DNA from: an uncultured Eubacterium sp.
GTDB lineage: Bacteria; Bacillota_A; Clostridia; Lachnospirales; Lachnospiraceae
Direction of reading: 5' to 3'
Length of the DNA: 12,712 nucleotides
Assembly: GCA_948759685.1 (NCBI GenBank)
Contig: CAQBGY010000070.1
Coordinates: 1-12,712, forward strand
The position numbers and the translations under genes were made by a program. Of the stretch, positions 1-11,923 are shown in pieces. Every line of letters starts with the position of its first letter. The stretch's first letter is position 1. The notes under the pieces are model-generated. The model worked only from the letters and a program-made list of their open reading frames with translations, was not told where the DNA came from and made no database searches.

Positions 1-180
1 TATTCAAAAACTTATTTTCTCTTACCTATTGACTTTTGATAGTTGGTCTTTCTTTTTTATAAATTCACTCGATGGTTATTACCCCCCAATGATATTTGTA
101 GTTTATCACGAAATCGTTTTTAATACAATTATCCCAAAGCCAATAAAAACATCACCACTCTTTTTATTTTAAATAAGATT
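1..180. other. A/T-rich left-edge region, no gene seen
   Basis: No tRNA, credible coding frame or strong promoter is visible here. On the plus strand a TTGACT at 29-34 is followed by TATAAA at 59-64, which is too far apart for a normal sigma-A promoter. Short frames lack a Shine-Dalgarno site. The region lies beyond the terminator of the first tRNA cluster and probably belongs to whatever gene lies off the left edge. Confidence 0.4.
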
Positions 181-959: not shown

Positions 960-1259
960 CTATTTAACTCTATATTTTTTTACAGCTGAATACTTGCCAT
1001 ATATTTTTTTCTTTCCAACCACTTTATAAGCTCTTACCTTGATGTAATATACTTTTTTCTTTTTCAGTCTTGCTTTAATATAGCGGTTCTTATTTCTTCT
1101 GATTGTTTTTCTGACTTTAAACTTTCCTTTTTTACCAATACGGATTGCTACCTGATAACCACGTACTCCTTTAATTTTTTTCCACTTAATATTAATTTTT
1201 CTACGAGCCTTCTTCTTAATCTTAAGTCTCTTAACTTTTTTCGGTGGTTTTACTTTCTT
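960..1259 (-). other. Region encoding the Lys/Arg-rich FN3-like C-terminal domain
   Basis: Residues 1373-1471 of the glucanase contain 47 Lys/Arg in 99 residues and no Asp or Glu. The hydrophobic pattern (a Trp in an early strand, a GYQV strand, then YYIKVRAY near the end) follows an FN3 fold. A net charge near +47 suggests electrostatic attachment to wall teichoic acid or another polyanion. That role is inference. Confidence 0.7.
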
Positions 1260-4200
1260 CGTAGTAACACTTATTTTTGCTGTAGTTGTAGGATTTTTAT
1301 CCTCCCCACCAGTCACACCCGGAGTAGTTGTCTGATCTGTATTACCTCCAGTTACATCCGGTGTTGTTGTCTGGTCTGTGCCTCCTCCTGTTACATCAGG
1401 TGTCGTTGTCTCCGGTGTAGTAACACCATTTTCAGTGGTTGTTTCAACTGGTGCCGGTGTAGTAACAGGAGGAACTGTTGTCTCTGGTTCTTTATCATAA
1501 TAAACTTCCAATTCCAAAGAATTATCATCCTTAACTACACCTGTCAACTTACTTTTCGCTGTATTGATACTGTATCCGTTAAAGGCTTTTACTTTCGCCA
1601 CAACAGCTTCGCCGACAATGCCTGTAAATTTCTCTGATGCATCGCTCTTTTCTTCATATCCGCTAAAATCTGCTTTCTGCAGGTAATAACGTACACGATA
1701 ATCTGCTTTCTTCTTCTGTGTGCTCTGATCTTTCAGCTCTGCAACAGAAACCATAACCCAGTCTGTAAATTCCTGATCCTGAATATTAAAGCGGTATACC
1801 ACATACTGGCTGTCCTGAACTTTTCCTATATTCTTTTTAAAGGCTGTTCCTTCTTTATCCATATAGTATCCCGGCATTCCTGCACCATTACTTGATACTG
1901 CACTGTCAAATACACTCTGTGCCTCTGTCTTATTATCACATAATTTATAATATACCAATGCCATAGATTTATCCTGTGCATCATTAATTACAAATGTAAG
2001 ACTATTATCCGCTCCAATAAATGCTCCTCTGCCTTCTGTTAACTCGCCGCCATTTCCTTTTTCTAAATCATAATATAAACGTAGTACCAGTTTATTATCT
2101 GCTAAAACAGTACCTTCTGTTACGGAATTAGAATTTAATACATATCCATCATAATTCTTTGCTTCAGCTGAAACTTTAGTTCCAATAATACTGCTGATTG
2201 TCTTCGTATCTTCCGAAACAATCTCATATCCATTTCTTTCTTCTTTCTGCTTATAATACTCTACCGTATAACTGGATATCGTTGATTCATCTAAAAACTT
2301 AGCATAAAGTACCAGATTCCCTGCTGTAGACTCAGTAATTCCCATAATCTGGTTTGTATACTGTGCGTCTGTATACCAGCCTTCAAAACGGAAACCTTCT
2401 TTTACAGCCGGATTTAACGCAATCGTACTTCCATATCTGTAAGAAGCAGGATTATTTCCACTAATTGTACCACCAGCTAACGAATACTGAACAGTATAAC
2501 TGTTACGTTTATAATAAACTTTTATTGTTCCTGAATTATCTTCTTTCACTGGAGCCGTTAAAACATTATTTGCATTGGCTGCATCAAATGTAAATCCACT
2601 GATATTCTGTGGCTGGTATGTATAAGTTTCTGTGTCTGCCTTTACATTAATCTGTCTGTTGCTCTTGTCATAACCTGTTCCTGCATAGTTTTCCAGATAA
2701 ACTTCTAAATTCACTTTCTGTGTATTTCCTAAAAGTTCACTTGCATCTGTTTCCGGATTTTCACCATTTCCCATTTTCGGACCTTCATAAGTAGAATTCG
2801 CAGGAACATCTACATATGTTTTATCTGAGAAATAGATTCTCTGGTCTTCTTTTGTATGGTTTTCTACTACATACGTTTTTACACCATCTTTATTCAATAC
2901 AACTGCAAACGGTGAACTTGCAGTAATTGAGAAATCCTGTGTTCCATATTTCTTCAGACTAGTAATATACCCTAAAGTATGGGCTCTGGACTCACCATTT
3001 TCTATTCTTCCATCATCACTAACATCATACATTTTTAATGCTGCATCTGCATCGTAAAATGCATAATACTCTGCCACAATATCCTGATTAACATCATGAT
3101 TTGTCAGCATATCCATGCCACCGGCAAATCTATCTACAATCGCATCTTTATTATTTACAAAATTGGTCCACTGCATACTGTTTTCACCAATACTGTCCAC
3201 GACTGATTTTACTTTCTCAGGATATTTCCCTAAATAAAGAGATGCACCTGTAATTGGCAGCATAGAGATTGTTGATGCTTCTATAGGATTTTCTGTCCAC
3301 CATGCTGTATGGTCATAACGGCCTCCGAATAATCTTGAAACAATCTGTAAATTAAAATTATCTTTATCTTCATACCCATCTGTGAAAATTTCATCATGAA
3401 CATCATAGAAATAATCTTCGATTGCCGCAATTTCCGTTGTATACATATAAATACCGAGGTCACGTATCTGTTCATCTCCTACGGCTTCACCCCACATAAT
3501 AAGGGATGCCCATGCATTCACTGCCTCTGATGATGATTCCTGATTATTTCCACCACTAAGACCACCTTTTTCAGTTAATAATTTTCCATTCTCATCATAC
3601 TCATAATTTGCTACACCTGATGCCCATGAATGGCCTTCATAAATATCAAAATTTCTAAGGAAAGGATATTTAGCAGGACTATTTTTATTAAAACTGCTTC
3701 CATCCCGATTGGTATTGGCAAAATCACTAATCATCTCATAAACCATACCACCCCATTCTTTTGCCCATTCCGGATCTTTCATCGCAACAGCAGCTGCTGC
3801 CTTAATCCAATATCCATAGTGGAAATGATGATCATTTAACTGTTGATCTGTAGCGTAAGATGCAGGATAACCAATCAATGTTCCATAGTCTTCATTATAA
3901 TAGAAATAATCATCAATAAAGTCACCACTGATATAACCTGAATACGGATCAAACCAGAACTGAAGATAATTTTCTACACCCGCAACCATTTCATCTGTAA
4001 TGACCTTCATATCTTTATCCTCGTCAAACTGACCTGAAAGCCATATTGCATCTGCTAAAGTATTTAAATTCTTTCCTACCCAGTATGTATCATATCCACC
4101 ATATTGACCTTCCAAAAAACAAATCCATTGTGGATCATCTTTGTGCTTTCTATAATCATATAAGTATCCTAACTGATCTTTTATTTGTCCTATGGTAGTT

Positions 4201-5375
4201 TCATCGTCTGTCACCGGAAGTCCAGTCAATATTCCGTTGTATGACATTTGTGTAACATATTCTGTTCCAACAATAGTTTTCATTGTTCCACGTACAGTAT
4301 CATAAGTATACTTGGTATATGCTTCTTCTGAATAACGCCACTGATGTGGATACAGTGCAATAATTGTATCTCCACCAACTGCTCCTGTTTCCATATTTTT
4401 TGTTGTAACACTATATTTTGTAACTAATTTTGAAGAATTTTTAAGATATTCCCACTGTACTTTCGTATCTGTAATAAAATTAAATGCATACTGAGCATAT
4501 AACCCCCATGCCTCATCACTGCCATCCGGTAATATTGCAATGGACAAATATTTTGCATTTGCCGGCATATTGGCTGTCAGTTTTCCGCCTGCATTTGTCC
4601 ATGTTGTTCCTTTTGGTGCGTTCACGCTATAATAATGTGTTTTGCCATCTTTTTTATTTTTCAGGCTGACACCCAGACAGTTAGAAGATGTGGAATTCTT
4701 ATATATTGCCAAATCTGTTGCACCTGCCCCTAATGAAATTGTTGCTTTTAAATTTTCAAAAGTGTAATATGCATAAGGCGTTCCCTTCGCCAAAGTAGCA
4801 CGCATAGAAGATGTTCCTGCATTATTTTCCATCAGAATTTCATAAGTCCAGTCTGTCGTCTTATCCACTCTGGCATCTTTTGCAGAAAATCCTTCTCCAC
4901 CCACTACCAATTCTACCGTATTATCATTGAGATAACTTTCTACCATTGGCTCATTATCAACACTGTTTTTCAAAGTAGTCACAGCCGGTGCTGCCATCTG
5001 CATACCATTACTTGCAGCCCTGTAAGCCAATGGATGTGCATATAAAGATTCTGAATACTGGTCAAAAACAATAGAACTTGCCCAGTCATTTGTAGGCACT
5101 GTTCCAACCGTCTCCCGATAATTATCTGTCAAATATGTTACTGACGGCGGCAGTGTATCCTTTCTGTCTTTCCATGTCTGTCCCCAGTCATCGGTACCTA
5201 CACCGTAAACTTCCGTTTTAAATCCGCCTTTATCAAGCATAACGGAACTTTCTTCTGAGTAAAAATCTACTGTTGCTGCTTGTGTTACATTTCCTGTAAC
5301 CGGTATTCCTGTCACAACCATTGCTGTTGTACACAATAATACCATTGCTTTTTTCAGCATTTTCTGCTTTCTCAT
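960..5375 (-). CDS. Secreted GH81 endo-beta-1,3-glucanase with MucBP-like, InlB-type and basic FN3-like domains
   Basis: This 1471-residue exported enzyme is predicted to cleave internal beta-1,3-glucan bonds (laminarin, curdlan or fungal-wall type) by inversion. A Lys-rich signal peptide covers residues 1 to about 34. The GH81 region covers about 50-780, with the family signature NDHHFHYGY at 514-522. Asp515 matches the family's catalytic acid, and NQESSSEA supplies the base Glu613 with Glu617. The C-terminal part holds a MucBP-like repeat (about 887-957), an InlB/Listeria-Bacteroides repeat (959-1027), MucBP-like repeats (1035-1108 and 1225-1296), an unassigned stretch between the last two, a Thr/Pro linker with three 13-residue repeats, and a very basic FN3-like tail (1373-1471). 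I chose the ATG at 5375 because AGGAGAG precedes it and the signal peptide starts there. An ATG 26 codons upstream lies inside the terminator hairpin. I see no frameshift. Substrate is inferred from the family. Confidence 0.93.
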   Translation of the reverse strand: MRKQKMLKKAMVLLCTTAMVVTGIPVTGNVTQAATVDFYSEESSVMLDKGGFKTEVYGVGTDDWGQTWKDRKDTLPPSVTYLTDNYRETVGTVPTNDWASSIVFDQYSESLYAHPLAYRAASNGMQMAAPAVTTLKNSVDNEPMVESYLNDNTVELVVGGEGFSAKDARVDKTTDWTYEILMENNAGTSSMRATLAKGTPYAYYTFENLKATISLGAGATDLAIYKNSTSSNCLGVSLKNKKDGKTHYYSVNAPKGTTWTNAGGKLTANMPANAKYLSIAILPDGSDEAWGLYAQYAFNFITDTKVQWEYLKNSSKLVTKYSVTTKNMETGAVGGDTIIALYPHQWRYSEEAYTKYTYDTVRGTMKTIVGTEYVTQMSYNGILTGLPVTDDETTIGQIKDQLGYLYDYRKHKDDPQWICFLEGQYGGYDTYWVGKNLNTLADAIWLSGQFDEDKDMKVITDEMVAGVENYLQFWFDPYSGYISGDFIDDYFYYNEDYGTLIGYPASYATDQQLNDHHFHYGYWIKAAAAVAMKDPEWAKEWGGMVYEMISDFANTNRDGSSFNKNSPAKYPFLRNFDIYEGHSWASGVANYEYDENGKLLTEKGGLSGGNNQESSSEAVNAWASLIMWGEAVGDEQIRDLGIYMYTTEIAAIEDYFYDVHDEIFTDGYEDKDNFNLQIVSRLFGGRYDHTAWWTENPIEASTISMLPITGASLYLGKYPEKVKSVVDSIGENSMQWTNFVNNKDAIVDRFAGGMDMLTNHDVNQDIVAEYYAFYDADAALKMYDVSDDGRIENGESRAHTLGYITSLKKYGTQDFSITASSPFAVVLNKDGVKTYVVENHTKEDQRIYFSDKTYVDVPANSTYEGPKMGNGENPETDASELLGNTQKVNLEVYLENYAGTGYDKSNRQINVKADTETYTYQPQNISGFTFDAANANNVLTAPVKEDNSGTIKVYYKRNSYTVQYSLAGGTISGNNPASYRYGSTIALNPAVKEGFRFEGWYTDAQYTNQIMGITESTAGNLVLYAKFLDESTISSYTVEYYKQKEERNGYEIVSEDTKTISSIIGTKVSAEAKNYDGYVLNSNSVTEGTVLADNKLVLRLYYDLEKGNGGELTEGRGAFIGADNSLTFVINDAQDKSMALVYYKLCDNKTEAQSVFDSAVSSNGAGMPGYYMDKEGTAFKKNIGKVQDSQYVVYRFNIQDQEFTDWVMVSVAELKDQSTQKKKADYRVRYYLQKADFSGYEEKSDASEKFTGIVGEAVVAKVKAFNGYSINTAKSKLTGVVKDDNSLELEVYYDKEPETTVPPVTTPAPVETTTENGVTTPETTTPDVTGGGTDQTTTPDVTGGNTDQTTTPGVTGGEDKNPTTTAKISVTTKKVKPPKKVKRLKIKKKARRKINIKWKKIKGVRGYQVAIRIGKKGKFKVRKTIRRNKNRYIKARLKKKKVYYIKVRAYKVVGKKKIYGKYSAVKKYRVK
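1293..1409 (-). repeat. Three 13-codon repeats encoding the Thr/Pro/Gly linker
   Basis: Three tandem units encode TTTPDVTGGGTDQ, TTTPDVTGGNTDQ and TTTPGVTGGEDKN (residues 1323-1361 of the glucanase). They form a flexible extracellular linker between the MucBP-like repeats and the basic tail. Such tandem units often vary in copy number. Confidence 0.85.
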
Positions 5376-5412
5376 AGTCTCTCTCCTATCTTTTTTATTG
5401 TTCGTTCCTCTT

Positions 5413-5424
5413 TGAAACGTTTCA
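5413..5424. promoter_or_regulatory. 12-bp perfect palindrome, LacI-family-type operator
   Basis: TGAAACGTTTCA is a perfect palindrome with the central CG and AAACGTTT core seen in operators of LacI/GalR-family repressors such as PurR, RbsR and GalR. It is two bases shorter than a standard 14-bp CcpA cre site. It lies 38 bases upstream of the glucanase start codon, downstream of both the predicted promoter and the leader terminator, where a bound repressor could block elongation. No regulator gene is in the window. Confidence 0.6.
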
Positions 5425-5431
5425 TCCCCTG

Positions 5432-5462
5432 AAAAAAATAAGCAGCTATACATAGCTGCTTA
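5432..5462 (-). terminator. Intrinsic terminator in the glucanase leader, downstream of the rdgB operon
   Basis: A perfect 10-bp stem (5439-5448 with 5453-5462) with a 4-base loop is followed on the minus strand by seven T residues. It would end the rdgB-phosphoesterase transcript 80 bases past its stop codon. The best promoter for the glucanase lies upstream of it, so the hairpin is also in the glucanase leader and could act as an attenuator. Confidence 0.88.
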
Positions 5463-6668: not shown

Positions 6669-6696
6669 ATTATATCTTTACTTATTCGCCTGTTAA
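6669..6696 (-). promoter_or_regulatory. Sigma-A promoter of the rdgB-phosphoesterase operon
   Basis: TTAACA (6691-6696) is followed after 16 bases by a perfect TATAAT (6669-6674). The -35 box overlaps the stop codon of the upstream protease gene, and no terminator separates the two operons. Read-through from the protease could therefore add to rdgB expression. Confidence 0.75.
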
Positions 6697-8417
6697 TTAG
6701 ACGTATATGCCTTCAGACATATATTACATCCCTGCTTTTCAGCTGACTGCCAGTTTAGTCCGCCAGCACTGAAATATCCTTCTCCATCAGACAATTCTAC
6801 TGTCCCTTCCATAGATTCGGTCTCCATTTCAACTGGAATCATTTTAAAGATTTTATTATCTTTTTTATTTGTCACTTTCACAATAACGCTAAATTTCTGT
6901 TCTTCCGCCACGTCATACTTTTTATCCAGCTTAATCGTATAATATCCCTTATTTTTTATTATACCGGAAGCCGCTACATGATTTCTATTATTTAATGAAT
7001 TGACATCTTTATATTTCGGACAAACAAAAACCTCATATTCTAAATCTGTGGTCGTAGCATAAAAACCTACAGCCTCCACCTGTTCCTTTTCCTCAGCAGT
7101 ATATACATTTGAAAAATAAACAGTCTGCTCATCTTCAAACCCCATGGAACCGGTCCAGCCACACAAATCACTCTGATAAATATTTTTATAATTATCTGTA
7201 TCTTCTATCTTTGTGTAACATACATTATTCGTCCCTATCAAATCATCATAATAAGATACATAAAACACACCATGATATCCAAAGTCATCTCCCCAGCTGT
7301 TCATGCAGATAAATGCTCCATCACCCTCTATTGTCTGGTCATTAAACAACTCTTTGGAATAATTGTCATCCCATCCTATAATGACCACATCATGATTTGG
7401 TTTGTTTTTCCCCTTATAACAGTAAGCGTATTCCGTTTCATTATAATAAACCGATGACATATTTCTGCTGCTCATTGACATATACATTGAGCTCTCTACA
7501 CCGCCGTATTTATAAACCATATTTTTTATCTGTTTATAATCCTTTTCCGGAATAATCTGAGCCTCCTGTACATGCTTTACACTGTTCCATGTTTTATTGT
7601 TGTTCTTAGTACCATAGGGATCATCTTTTTCCAACACAGGACCTTTCCAAGACATGAGATAGGACATAGACATCATATAATCTCCACCATCCTGTATATC
7701 ATCTGACAATTCATTATTGTAAATCAGATTATTTTCAGAAAAATCATAATTTTCTTCCGGTGTTAATGATGTCTCCAGTGCAGTAAGTGTCGCAAACGCC
7801 CAGCATGTTCCATAATTTCCCTGATCTTTCACAGGTACAGCACGTTTTTTATCAACATAACTATATCGTTCCGGCAAATAAGAATCTGACAATGCATTGT
7901 CATTCAGGCTTGCCTCATTTTTCCTGCTGTCCCACTCATATGTGTAATTAAAATACTCACTAAAAACTGTAGCAGGAATATACACGACACCTTCTTTTTT
8001 CGCGATTTTATCTTTTAGGTGATATTCATTATCATTGAAAGTTATGCGTTTTTCACCGATATACATAATAGCAATATTACTTCCTTTTTCAATAACAACC
8101 CTATTATTATAATAAATATTTTCAGCACAATTCAATGTATCTTTTATTATATTCAACGGAATCATCAGATTCATATTTTCACTCATATAAATCTGGTTCT
8201 CATCTAATTCGACCTGCCTGTTGTTTACTTTCAGATGTATCGGTTTGTGATTAGCACTTTCTGCCATAATCTGATTCCAATTTTCTTTGGAATCCACATT
8301 TTCTCCCGCCATGCTTTTCTGTACAGTCTGTCTGGAAAACATAAAAAATACAACTGCCAGAATAACAAATAAAATTAATATTGGCAAATATATAATAATT
8401 AGTTTCTTTTTATTCAT
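6693..8417 (-). CDS. Membrane-anchored papain-like (C1) cysteine protease with stalk and lectin-like domains
   Basis: This 574-residue protein has an uncleaved-looking N-terminal membrane segment (about 5-27) after a Lys-rich start, so the rest should face outside. Residues about 60-165 resemble the copper-amine-oxidase N-terminal-like domain common on clostridial surface proteins. Residues about 190-400 are a C1 peptidase with oxyanion Gln199, nucleophile Cys205 in YGTCWAF, His342 in NHDVVIIGW and Asn373 in MNSWG, so the catalytic set is complete. The remainder (about 410-574) resembles the lectin-like domain found behind C1 peptidases of the Cwp84 type. No prodomain is obvious, so the N-terminal module may serve that role. 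The ATG follows the methyltransferase stop codon with no gap, with AAGGA seven bases upstream. Substrate is unknown. Confidence 0.9.
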   Translation of the reverse strand: MNKKKLIIIYLPILILFVILAVVFFMFSRQTVQKSMAGENVDSKENWNQIMAESANHKPIHLKVNNRQVELDENQIYMSENMNLMIPLNIIKDTLNCAENIYYNNRVVIEKGSNIAIMYIGEKRITFNDNEYHLKDKIAKKEGVVYIPATVFSEYFNYTYEWDSRKNEASLNDNALSDSYLPERYSYVDKKRAVPVKDQGNYGTCWAFATLTALETSLTPEENYDFSENNLIYNNELSDDIQDGGDYMMSMSYLMSWKGPVLEKDDPYGTKNNNKTWNSVKHVQEAQIIPEKDYKQIKNMVYKYGGVESSMYMSMSSRNMSSVYYNETEYAYCYKGKNKPNHDVVIIGWDDNYSKELFNDQTIEGDGAFICMNSWGDDFGYHGVFYVSYYDDLIGTNNVCYTKIEDTDNYKNIYQSDLCGWTGSMGFEDEQTVYFSNVYTAEEKEQVEAVGFYATTTDLEYEVFVCPKYKDVNSLNNRNHVAASGIIKNKGYYTIKLDKKYDVAEEQKFSVIVKVTNKKDNKIFKMIPVEMETESMEGTVELSDGEGYFSAGGLNWQSAEKQGCNICLKAYTSN

Positions 8418-10083: not shown

Positions 10084-10119
10084 TAAAAAGCCTACGGTAT
10101 TCATTGAATACCATAGGCT
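10084..10119 (-). terminator. Intrinsic terminator of the NSTSK-repeat small gene
   Basis: A 14-bp stem (10089-10102 with 10106-10119, one G-U pair) has a 3-base loop and is followed by TTTTT on the minus strand. It lies 13 bases past the stop codon of the small gene, which marks that gene as a separate transcription unit from the rhodanese. Confidence 0.93.
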
Positions 10120-10132
10120 CACACTTCAATAG

Positions 10133-10303
10133 CTATCTACAATTTGTACTATCGCTAGTGCTGTTCTTAGATGTGCTGTTTTTAGATGTACTGTTTTTTG
10201 AAGTACTATTCTTTGAAGTGCTGTTTTTAGATGTGCTGTTCTGTGCATCTGTTGCATCACTATAATTAGATGCATTCTGTGAATTTGAATAATTCTTTGA
10301 CAT
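10133..10303 (-). CDS. Small Ser/Asn/Thr/Lys-rich protein with five NSTSK repeats
   Basis: The frame encodes 56 residues, of which 43 are Ser, Asn, Thr or Lys. The N terminus is MSKNYSNSQNASNYSDATDA and Gln. Five exact NSTSK units (residues 22-46) and a sixth degenerate NSTSD follow, then STNCR with a single Cys next to last. There is no signal peptide or membrane segment, and it should be disordered. Translation is well supported: AGGAGG lies five bases before the ATG, a strong terminator lies 13 bases past the stop, and the repeats differ in DNA only at synonymous positions. A sigma-G consensus promoter lies 41 bases upstream, implying forespore expression. I do not recognise a named family. 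It resembles no classical alpha/beta SASP, and a spore-core, coat or DNA-associated role would be a guess. Confidence 0.85.
   Translation of the reverse strand: MSKNYSNSQNASNYSDATDAQNSTSKNSTSKNSTSKNSTSKNSTSKNSTSDSTNCR
10166..10240 (-). repeat. Five 15-bp tandem repeats encoding NSTSK
   Basis: Five contiguous 15-base units encode the same pentapeptide. They differ from each other by AAC/AAT, AGC/AGT, ACA/ACT, TCT/TCA and AAA/AAG, all silent changes. This indicates protein-level constraint after duplication. Confidence 0.95.
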
Positions 10304-10308
10304 AACTA

Positions 10309-10314
10309 CCTCCT
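10309..10314 (-). promoter_or_regulatory. Perfect Shine-Dalgarno site of the small NSTSK gene
   Basis: AGGAGG, fully complementary to the 3' end of 16S rRNA, lies five bases before the ATG at 10301-10303. It is the strongest ribosome site in the window and argues for abundant translation. Confidence 0.9.
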
Positions 10315-10343
10315 AAACATAAACAATTGTTTTGTTACATCAG

Positions 10344-10373
10344 TAGTATGTCATAAATATATTTTTTTATTCA
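10344..10373 (-). promoter_or_regulatory. Sigma-G (forespore) consensus promoter of the small NSTSK gene
   Basis: TGAATA (10368-10373) and CATACTA (10344-10350) are separated by exactly 17 bases. This matches every position of the classical B. subtilis sigma-G consensus (TGAATA, 17-18, CATACTA). I see no good sigma-A promoter between the tRNA-Arg terminator and the gene. Transcription would start near 10337. It is a sequence match only, without expression evidence. Confidence 0.75.
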
Positions 10374-10406
10374 TTAAAAAAGACCTCTGATTTTTCAGAA
10401 GTCTTT
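10374..10406 (-). terminator. Intrinsic terminator of tRNA-Arg(ACG)
   Basis: A 12-bp stem (10379-10390 with 10395-10406, one U-G pair) with an AAAA loop runs into a T tract on the minus strand. It begins two bases past the tRNA and abuts the sigma-G -35 box of the next gene. Confidence 0.9.
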
Positions 10407-10408
10407 AA

Positions 10409-10482
10409 TGTGCGTGAAAGGATTCGAACCCTCGACCTTCTGGTCCGTAGCCAGACGCTCTATCCAGCTGAGCTACACGCAC
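10409..10482 (-). tRNA. tRNA-Arg(ACG)
   Basis: This is a 74-nt cloverleaf. The acceptor stem GTGCGTG/CACGCAC and anticodon stem-loop TCTGG-CTACGGA-CCAGA give anticodon ACG. A34 is normally deaminated to inosine by TadA to read CGU, CGC and CGA. The discriminator is A and CCA is not encoded. It is a stand-alone gene with its own promoter and terminator. Confidence 0.97.
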
Positions 10483-10594: not shown

Positions 10595-11923
10595 CTAATG
10601 TACAATATTCAGATTCAAATCTACTGCTGTCTTTATACCACTTACTTTTCCCTTAGCCGAGTACTGCCACATCTGTACATTTGGAAGTCCTCCGTCATAA
10701 AAATTCTTTGCGCTGTTAGTCCATCTCGCAAGCCATATTCCATATTTAGAAACTTTCTTATAATCTACCGCCTTATGAAAAAAATCCATATACGAATAAA
10801 CACTCGTATCAAATCCTTTCTTTTCAAGATAATTACAATATGTAGTAATTATCTTTGTATTAGATTTCTTGTATTTCTTCTTATTTCTATATGTATTTTC
10901 AAAATCAAAGGCCATAGGAAAATCTAACTTATTATACTTCTTTAGCATTTTGTAAGTAAATTTTGCTTCATTCCGTGCCTCTCTTACATTATCTGCATAA
11001 CTATACAAATATAATCCTACCTTTATTCCATTTTTTCTCGCATTTTTATAATTATAATCTAAAGAACTATCTATAATACCACCTTTTGAAGTACCATACC
11101 CCATACGAATCATTGCAAAAGAAATACCGGCTTTTCTGACCTTTTTCCAATCTATCTTCCCATTATGATAAGATACATCTATTCCCTTTAAATCACCTAC
11201 GTTTACAGATGTAGAATAAACACTAATATAATCCTGCCCATCCACATTTTCTATTGCAGCTACTCTATACTGATATTTCCCAGTCGTAACGATATCATAG
11301 TCCTCATACACATCTTTATTCTTAGAAAGTGTTACTATTTCTTTCCAGCTTTCATTATCTTTTTTCCGTAAGATTTTATATCCTGATGCCAATTCGTTCA
11401 AATCCCACGAAATATATTTATGATCTTTAAAAGTAACTACATGAACATTATCTACACCATATGGTTTTGCCAGATATGAACCACTCACAATACTACTCTT
11501 ATCATATACTTTTTTATTCTTTTTATAATAAAACGGTTTAATTTGGTAACGATACGATTCTCCCGTTTCAATATCCTCATCAACATATTGTTTCTTACTG
11601 ACTGTATCAACTTTTTTAAATTTAGCGGTATTAATACTTCTATATATAACATATCCCTTATACTTTTTCGTTGTATTCCATTTTATTTTTGTTCCTCTTT
11701 TAGTACTTGATATTTTTGTAAAAGAAATACTCTCCTCTATTTGGTTATCTACTATTTCAGTTTTTGAAATATCAATATTAGTATTTGCCCCTGTTGTTAC
11801 TAATCCCATAAAACAAACTACTGATGCTATAAAAGCAGTTTCAAATACTTTTCTCATTTGAATAATAATCTTTCTATCTATAATATACTTTTTATTTTTT
11901 TGTTTTTTCTCCTGATTCTTCAT
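10595..11923 (-). CDS. GH25 muramidase with two FN3-like domains and an N-terminal membrane segment
   Basis: This 442-residue protein is predicted to hydrolyse the MurNAc-GlcNAc bond of peptidoglycan outside the cell. After a basic N terminus, a hydrophobic segment (about 25-45) serves as signal peptide or anchor. Two FN3-like domains follow (about 66-152 and 155-241), recognisable from the KIKWNTTKKYKGYVIYR and YISWDLNELASGYKILR strands. The GH25 domain covers about 246-440: GIDVSYHNG with Asp249, the catalytic pair Asp340 and Glu342 in MAFDFE, MWQYS at 418-422, and Asp435 near the end. The GH25 active site looks complete. GAGGAAAG lies about nine bases before the ATG at 11923. A second Met at residue 23 would shorten only the cytosolic part. 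It is monocistronic, between two tRNA units. A role in wall turnover or sporulation is inference. Confidence 0.92.
   Translation of the reverse strand: MKNQEKKQKNKKYIIDRKIIIQMRKVFETAFIASVVCFMGLVTTGANTNIDISKTEIVDNQIEESISFTKISSTKRGTKIKWNTTKKYKGYVIYRSINTAKFKKVDTVSKKQYVDEDIETGESYRYQIKPFYYKKNKKVYDKSSIVSGSYLAKPYGVDNVHVVTFKDHKYISWDLNELASGYKILRKKDNESWKEIVTLSKNKDVYEDYDIVTTGKYQYRVAAIENVDGQDYISVYSTSVNVGDLKGIDVSYHNGKIDWKKVRKAGISFAMIRMGYGTSKGGIIDSSLDYNYKNARKNGIKVGLYLYSYADNVREARNEAKFTYKMLKKYNKLDFPMAFDFENTYRNKKKYKKSNTKIITTYCNYLEKKGFDTSVYSYMDFFHKAVDYKKVSKYGIWLARWTNSAKNFYDGGLPNVQMWQYSAKGKVSGIKTAVDLNLNIVH

What the first reader, a model, noticed from the sequence alone, without database searches (positions are those of the whole stretch)
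10344..10373. Perfect sigma-G consensus promoter in front of the small repeat gene
TGAATA, 17 bases, CATACTA matches all 13 positions of the classical Bacillus sigma-G consensus with optimal spacing. It sits between the tRNA-Arg terminator and the small gene, where no credible sigma-A promoter is visible. A full chance match in about 25 kb of strand is unlikely, even allowing for A/T bias. It predicts that this protein is made in the forespore, the compartment where SASPs are made, and so suggests a new spore component.
Basis: partly seen in the sequence, partly recalled or inferred. Interest (0 to 1): 0.78.

Follow-up and report, generated by a model that had tools for sequence, protein, structure and literature searches.

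The report
Spore-type promoter before asparagine-serine repeat gene
A short asparagine- and serine-rich gene of a gut bacterium of the Lachnospira group carries the same kind of switch as the gene for a known DNA-protecting spore protein, so it and its relatives are probably an undescribed family of spore proteins.

Summary
The site is real: TGAATA-17-CATACTA, minus strand, 10373-10344, no mismatch. A degenerate sigma-G consensus alone has no power in the nearest held genome, G001 (102 sites, reversed control 115). Comparison carries the case.

(1) The one alpha/beta SASP gene found in G001 has the same extended site, CATAMTA-N5-GTAACA; the strict form occurs twice in G001: SASP and this gene.

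(2) A matrix from 24 SASP promoters of the same family scores the site 22.4; 490 control upstream regions reach at most 17.0. Of 37 relatives, 30 exceed the controls' 99th percentile (26 of 33 not found by promoter).

(3) In 60 genomes the strict pattern hits 25 places: 8 before SASPs, 5 before such genes (this one included), 12 elsewhere; reversed control 14.

(4) SigG passes its cut-off in 15 of 16 genomes with the gene near rlmL and in 12 of 34 where none was seen there.

The protein is 56 aa, hydrophilic, without predicted structure. No Pfam or NCBIfam model matches any of 38 relatives. Forespore expression is strongly supported by inference; no expression data were seen. Function is open; favoured guess: a gamma-SASP-like store or filler of the spore core.

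The parts
10368..10373 (-). -35 box TGAATA (its GAATA fits GNATA of the printed sigma-G consensus)
   Evidence: GAATA in L002, GTATA in the genus relative L246
10344..10350 (-). -10 box CATACTA
   Evidence: aligned in homologues
10333..10338 (-). GTAACA element 5 bases after the -10 box, probably at or next to the transcription start; shared with SASP promoters of the same family
   Evidence: the start position is inferred, not mapped
10309..10314 (-). ribosome binding site AGGAGG
10133..10303 (-). 56-aa N/S/T/K-rich protein with NSTSK repeats and one Cys near the C-terminus
   Evidence: homologues
10086..10122 (-). probable terminator of the small gene (long hairpin then T-run; ends approximate)
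   Evidence: fold of 10135-10075 gives -27.4 kcal/mol; not listed by the scan
10375..10406 (-). hairpin and T-run that separates the unit from tRNA-Arg
   Evidence: fold -14.9 kcal/mol; not listed by the scan
10409..10482 (-). tRNA-Arg (acg), upstream neighbour

Best explanation
10373-10344 is a forespore promoter read by RNA polymerase with sigma-G, possibly also by sigma-F earlier. It drives a one-gene unit between two hairpin terminators that makes a 56-aa, positively charged N/S/T/K-repeat protein in the forespore, together with the alpha/beta SASP. Shown by sequence: the site, its conservation, its shared form with the SASP promoter, and co-occurrence with SigG. Inferred: use by sigma-G, forespore localisation, disorder, presence in the spore core. 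My preferred role (about 45%) is a bulk hydrophilic protein of the spore core that serves as a nitrogen-rich amino-acid store or as filler, in the manner of gamma-type SASP.
For: Exact site. SASP-trained matrix: window 22.4, maximum of 490 controls 17.0, 30 of 37 homologues above the controls' 99th percentile, AUC 0.98; 0 of 1850 single-base shuffles reach 22.4. The strict extended pattern occurs twice in G001: SASP and this gene. In 60 genomes it hits 25 places, 8 before SASP and 5 before N/S-rich genes (this one included); reversed control 14. SigG over its cut-off in 15 of 16 against 12 of 34 genomes, Fisher p = 1.4e-4. SigF, SigE, SigG and one SASP present in G001. Within the genus the boxes persist while the spacer and the free base of the -35 box change (L246 GTATA-17-CATACTA).
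Against: No transcript, start site or protein evidence was seen. The window's own genome is not held. 7 of 37 homologue upstream regions score below the controls' 99th percentile, L042 (-1.2) and L030 (0.9) lowest. The GTAAC element is changed in the genus relatives L246 (GTGAC) and L247 (GTACT). One genome with the gene (L042's) has no SigG over the cut-off, and G002 has no SASP match; both are probably incomplete. Homologues and genomes are related, so the counts are not independent. The role of the protein is not shown: no GPR-like E-[FILMV]-[AG] motif in 37 members.
Confidence: 0.88

Rival explanations
1. Dual sigma-F and sigma-G promoter, or mainly sigma-F: the gene is switched on early in the forespore, before the SASP genes.
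For: A G stands at the second base before the -10 box in 21 of 27 family promoters, the window's included, but in 2 of 24 SASP promoters. The sigma-F -10 box printed in PMC3416734 is GGNAANAMTR. In C. difficile spoVT has both the sigma-F G and the sigma-G A and may be a direct target of both (PMC3789822 passages).
Against: The other G of the sigma-F pair is T in the window and G in only 4 of 27 family promoters. The first base of the -10 box is C, as in sigma-G sites, in 19 of 27. The GTAACA extension is that of SASPs.
Confidence: 0.25
2. Chance match: the gene is vegetative or silent and the boxes are accidental.
For: A degenerate sigma-G consensus is no more frequent than its reversed control in two genomes (102 against 115, 75 against 73). 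A weak sigma-A-like site overlaps.
Against: Conservation at a similar distance from the start codon, with the same extended element as SASP, in 30 of 37 homologues; the strict form occurs at only two places in G001.
Confidence: 0.04
3. About the protein's role: a structural or cross-linking spore protein, whose one Cys forms disulfides in or near the inner spore layers while the repeat is a spacer.
For: 32 of 37 members have exactly one Cys; 13.5 are expected from a binomial. Cys is often near the C-terminus. C. difficile has a gene annotated 'spore coat assembly asparagine-rich protein' (PMC5311115 passage; its sequence was not compared).
Against: Four members have no Cys, one has two, and its place varies. 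The C. difficile gene is listed under SigK, not SigG, and coat proteins are usually mother-cell products (general knowledge).
Confidence: 0.2
4. About the protein's role: it protects the dry core or binds nucleic acid as a disordered basic protein.
For: Mean net charge +3.7, range 0 to +7; pI 9.6 and GRAVY -1.73 for the window protein; no predicted structure, mean pLDDT 54.6.
Against: No known domain; alpha/beta SASPs already protect spore DNA.
Confidence: 0.3

Closest known systems
alpha/beta-type SASP genes (SspA/SspB family, Pfam PF00269)
   Same: Small; in G001 the same extended promoter CATAMTA-N5-GTAACA
   Different: No PF00269 match, no GPR-like site; polar repeats instead of the conserved SASP sequence
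gamma-type SASP (SspE, Pfam PF04259)
   Same: Works-like candidate: small, repetitive, polar, low in hydrophobic residues (SspE's make-up from memory); gamma SASP is described as a presumed amino-acid reserve (PMC8452069)
   Different: No PF04259 match (0 of 38 members; 0 of 299 family genomes); no GPR-like site; usually one Cys; said in print to be absent from clostridia
sigma-G promoters of Bacillus subtilis and Clostridioides difficile
   Same: GNATA and CAWAMTA boxes (consensus printed in PMC3416734), 17-base spacer
   Different: SASP and N/S-rich promoters of this family add GTAACA 5 bases after the -10 box; not found at SASP genes of a class-wide sample (0 of 23 with sound starts)

Membership tests
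sigma-G promoter | -35 GNATA and -10 CAWAMTA with about 17-18 bp between | tested here: met
   against the consensus printed in PMC3416734; the spacing is recalled
sigma-G promoter | organism encodes SigG and sporulation genes | tested here: met
   In G001, the genome of the contig with the identical RlmL protein (the window's own genome is not held): SigG over the cut-off of NF006071 (430 bits, 372) but under that of TIGR02850 (411, 457); SigE over both its cut-offs; SpoIIAB over its cut-off; SigF over the SigF/SigG subfamily cut-off (315, 311) but under TIGR02885 (308, 321); one PF00269 match
sigma-G promoter | conserved in homologues and shared with known sigma-G genes | tested here: met
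   7 of 37 homologues do not reach the controls' 99th percentile
sigma-G promoter | transcription lost in a sigG mutant | not testable with these tools
   no expression data
sigma-F promoter | GG before the -10 box (GGNAANAMTR) | tested here: inconclusive
   second G present in the window and in 21 of 27 family promoters, first G in 4 of 27 and not in the window
alpha/beta-type SASP | matches PF00269 | tested here: not met
gamma-type SASP | matches PF04259 | tested here: not met
   0 of 299 family genomes have any match
gamma-type SASP | cleaved by GPR at an E-[FIL]-[AG] type site (site recalled) | tested here: not met
   0 of 37 members have E-[FILMV]-[AG]
gamma-type SASP | abundant in spore core, degraded early in germination | not testable with these tools
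   needs spore proteomics

The most novel reading that the evidence does not exclude
Probability: 0.3. Interest if true: 0.75.

Novelty: new variant of a known kind. Interest (0 to 1): 0.62.

Why it matters
Spores let gut Lachnospiraceae pass between hosts. This points to a protein family without a Pfam or NCBIfam model that shares its switch with SASP genes, and to an extended form of the sigma-G promoter that could be used to list forespore genes in these bacteria. It also bears on the printed statement that clostridia have no gamma-type SASP, and gives a cheap test of it.

Tried and rejected
Degenerate consensus scan of two genomes: no excess over the reversed control, so not used as evidence. 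Relaxed pattern ATAMTA-N5-GTAACA: 6 sites in G001 and 4 in G002 (controls 3 and 3); apart from SASP and this gene, the 4 others in G001 and 3 in G002 have no ribosome-site-led ORF close behind. Protein database search with the 38-row alignment: 7979 candidates scored, nothing at E <= 0.001; with the single protein: 2 hits. Profile searches: A1 hit 7 of 299 genomes at E <= 0.01, A2 hit 51 of 397 at E <= 0.05, many of them long unrelated repeat proteins, and A2 missed G001's own gene. Prevalence is therefore unknown. AlphaFold gave no structure.

Parsing of class-level SASPs failed once (0 parsed), was redone with a looser expression (25 of 29 parsed, 0 with the extension, 9 starts too far downstream) and again with other start codons while checking this report (24 of 29 parsed, one of them a wrong ORF, 0 with the extension).

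Rows dropped: SASP locus L136 not parsed; of 45 family genomes with SASP only the 30 returned loci were used; 5 of the 29 parsed SASPs lack the element and are not in the matrix, whose -35 part rests on 22 of the 24. L190, L192 and L198 look like relatives but fell outside the fixed filter; L040 has too little upstream sequence; L246 and L247 were fetched later and are not among the 37. For one search I chose 59 of the 73 rlmL loci by hand, and 50 of these 59 were searched.

Papers: passages only of PMC3789822, PMC3416734, PMC3533761, PMC8452069, PMC5311115, PMC5942855 and PMC9658361; all others only as titles and abstract starts in capped listings. In those listings I saw no paper on this family or on GTAACA; no search on the letters GTAACA was made.

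Full report
What is there. The minus strand reads tRNA-Arg (10482-10409), a hairpin with T-run (fold -14.9 kcal/mol), TGAATA at 10373-10368, 17 bases, CATACTA at 10350-10344, GTAACA at 10338-10333, AGGAGG at 10314-10309, ATG at 10303, stop at 10133, then a strong hairpin with T-run at about 10120-10086 (fold -27.4 kcal/mol). The consensus terminator scan lists neither hairpin. It looks like a one-gene unit with its own promoter. The exact match is the only one in the window, and 0.0014 are expected from composition.

Where it comes from. No genome is held for the window. The closest locus is L001, whose RlmL protein is 100% identical (Eubacteriaceae bacterium isolate B88_13_EV_BP, contig MGBC000141.15); its genome is G001.

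Why the match alone is not enough. In G001, KNATR-16..18-CATAMTA has 102 sites and its reversed control 115; in G002, 75 and 73. The consensus alone does not discriminate, and the exact string was chosen after the fact. Comparison decides.

Comparison with SASP. G001 encodes SigE and SigG side by side and SpoIIAB before SigF (a SpoIIAA-like ORF before them was not scanned), and has one PF00269 (alpha/beta SASP) match; G002, at 1.8 Mb probably incomplete, has none. The SASP's upstream region reads CATAATA-GTAGT-GTAACA; the window has CATACTA-CTGAT-GTAACA. In G001 the strict form CATAMTA-N5-GTAACA occurs at exactly these two places. In 60 genomes of the family (G001 among them) it hits 25 places in 19 genomes; the reversed control hits 14. 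Of the 25, 8 precede alpha/beta SASPs (L162, L164, L167, L171, L172, L174, L176 and, by coordinates, L182), 5 precede N/S-rich small genes (L169, L175, L178, L181 = this gene, L184), one precedes another ORF 145 bases on (L173), and 11 have no ribosome-site-led ORF nearby. Two gene families thus account for about the excess over the control.

Homologues. A fixed filter on composition, length and ribosome site over 214 loci gave 37 distinct proteins. Counting L040 too, 16 of the 73 rlmL loci carry one near rlmL. In 26 of 37 a simple expression for -10 plus GTA[AG] is found upstream, against 9 of 491 control ORFs; 22 of 33 without the four found by promoter. A matrix built from 24 of 29 SASP promoters (those with the element; -35 part from 22) gives the window 22.4. 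The 490 controls have 99th percentile 8.0 and maximum 17.0; 30 of 37 homologues exceed 8.0 and 16 exceed 17.0; AUC 0.98; 0 of 1850 single-base shuffles reach the window's score. Without the four found by promoter it is 26 of 33 above 8.0. Seven score below: L027, L036, L025, L054, L087, L030, L042. In the genus, 4 of 23 genomes gave a match. L246 has GTATA-17-CATACTA-N5-GTGACA and L247 GTATA-18-CATAATA-N5-GTACTA, so the boxes persist while the spacer, the surroundings and the extension change.

Co-occurrence. SigG over its cut-off: 15 of 16 genomes with the gene near rlmL, 12 of 34 in whose held locus no gene passed the filter; Fisher p = 1.4e-4. The exception, the genome of L042, has a SigF-like hit only. 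Genomes without the gene at this place may have it elsewhere, the 50 were chosen by hand from 73, and kinship inflates the contrast.

Sigma-G or sigma-F. In 21 of 27 family promoters a G stands two bases before the -10 box; SASP promoters have it in 2 of 24. The sigma-F box printed in PMC3416734 is GGNAANAMTR; the other G of its pair is there in 4 of 27 and not in the window. PMC3789822 (passages) says that in C. difficile a G upstream marks sigma-F, an A downstream marks sigma-G, and spoVT has both. Dual use is a live rival; both factors act in the forespore.

The protein. N 31%, S 26%, Q 9%, K 8% over the 37; net charge 0 to +7, mean +3.7; exactly one Cys in 32 of 37 where 13.5 are expected. 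AlphaFold: mean pLDDT 54.6, no secondary structure. No Pfam or NCBIfam match at E <= 0.01 for any of 38 members. Gamma-SASP (PF04259) is found in 0 of 299 family genomes while the control rings in B. subtilis. PMC3533761 (passages) states that gamma-type SspE was absent from every clostridial genome sequenced to its date (2012); PMC8452069 (passages) says that none had been found in clostridial species to date and that it is thought to be an amino-acid reserve. The N/S-rich proteins are not members of that family, but could do the same job. Against this: no GPR-like site (0 of 37).

Extended promoter. The GTA[AG]C element is at 24 of 29 SASP genes of the family sample and at none of 23 with sound starts in a class-wide sample (24 parsed of 29 loci, one a wrong ORF; one search gave 0 of 25). 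Its distance from the -10 box puts it at the expected transcription start; this is inference.

Verdict. Observation confirmed, interpretation supported; forespore expression about 0.88, function open.

Noticed in passing
L121 and L132-L160 (SASP upstream regions): SASP promoters of this family carry GTAAC or GTAGC 5 bases after the -10 box (24 of 29), not seen in a class-wide sample (0 of 23 with sound starts).
   Followed up: partly
SASP leaders with the element, for example L132, L133, L135, L137, L143, L151: In 8 of 24 SASP leaders a GTTAC follows the GTAAC (0.44 expected from shuffles), so the mRNA may begin with a hairpin; 0 of 12 N/S-rich leaders tested.
   Followed up: partly
37 family proteins: Exactly one cysteine in 32 of 37, though its place varies.
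   Followed up: partly
window 10595-11923, minus strand: GH25 lysozyme-type protein (Pfam) upstream of the tRNA-Arg; the ORF end before the tRNA in L247 looks alike by eye (not scanned).
   Followed up: no
window 6693-8417, minus strand: Papain-like protease with copper-amine-oxidase-N and lectin-like domains.
   Followed up: no
window 960-5453, minus strand: 1497-aa secreted-looking protein with a Thr/Pro-rich stretch; not searched.
   Followed up: no
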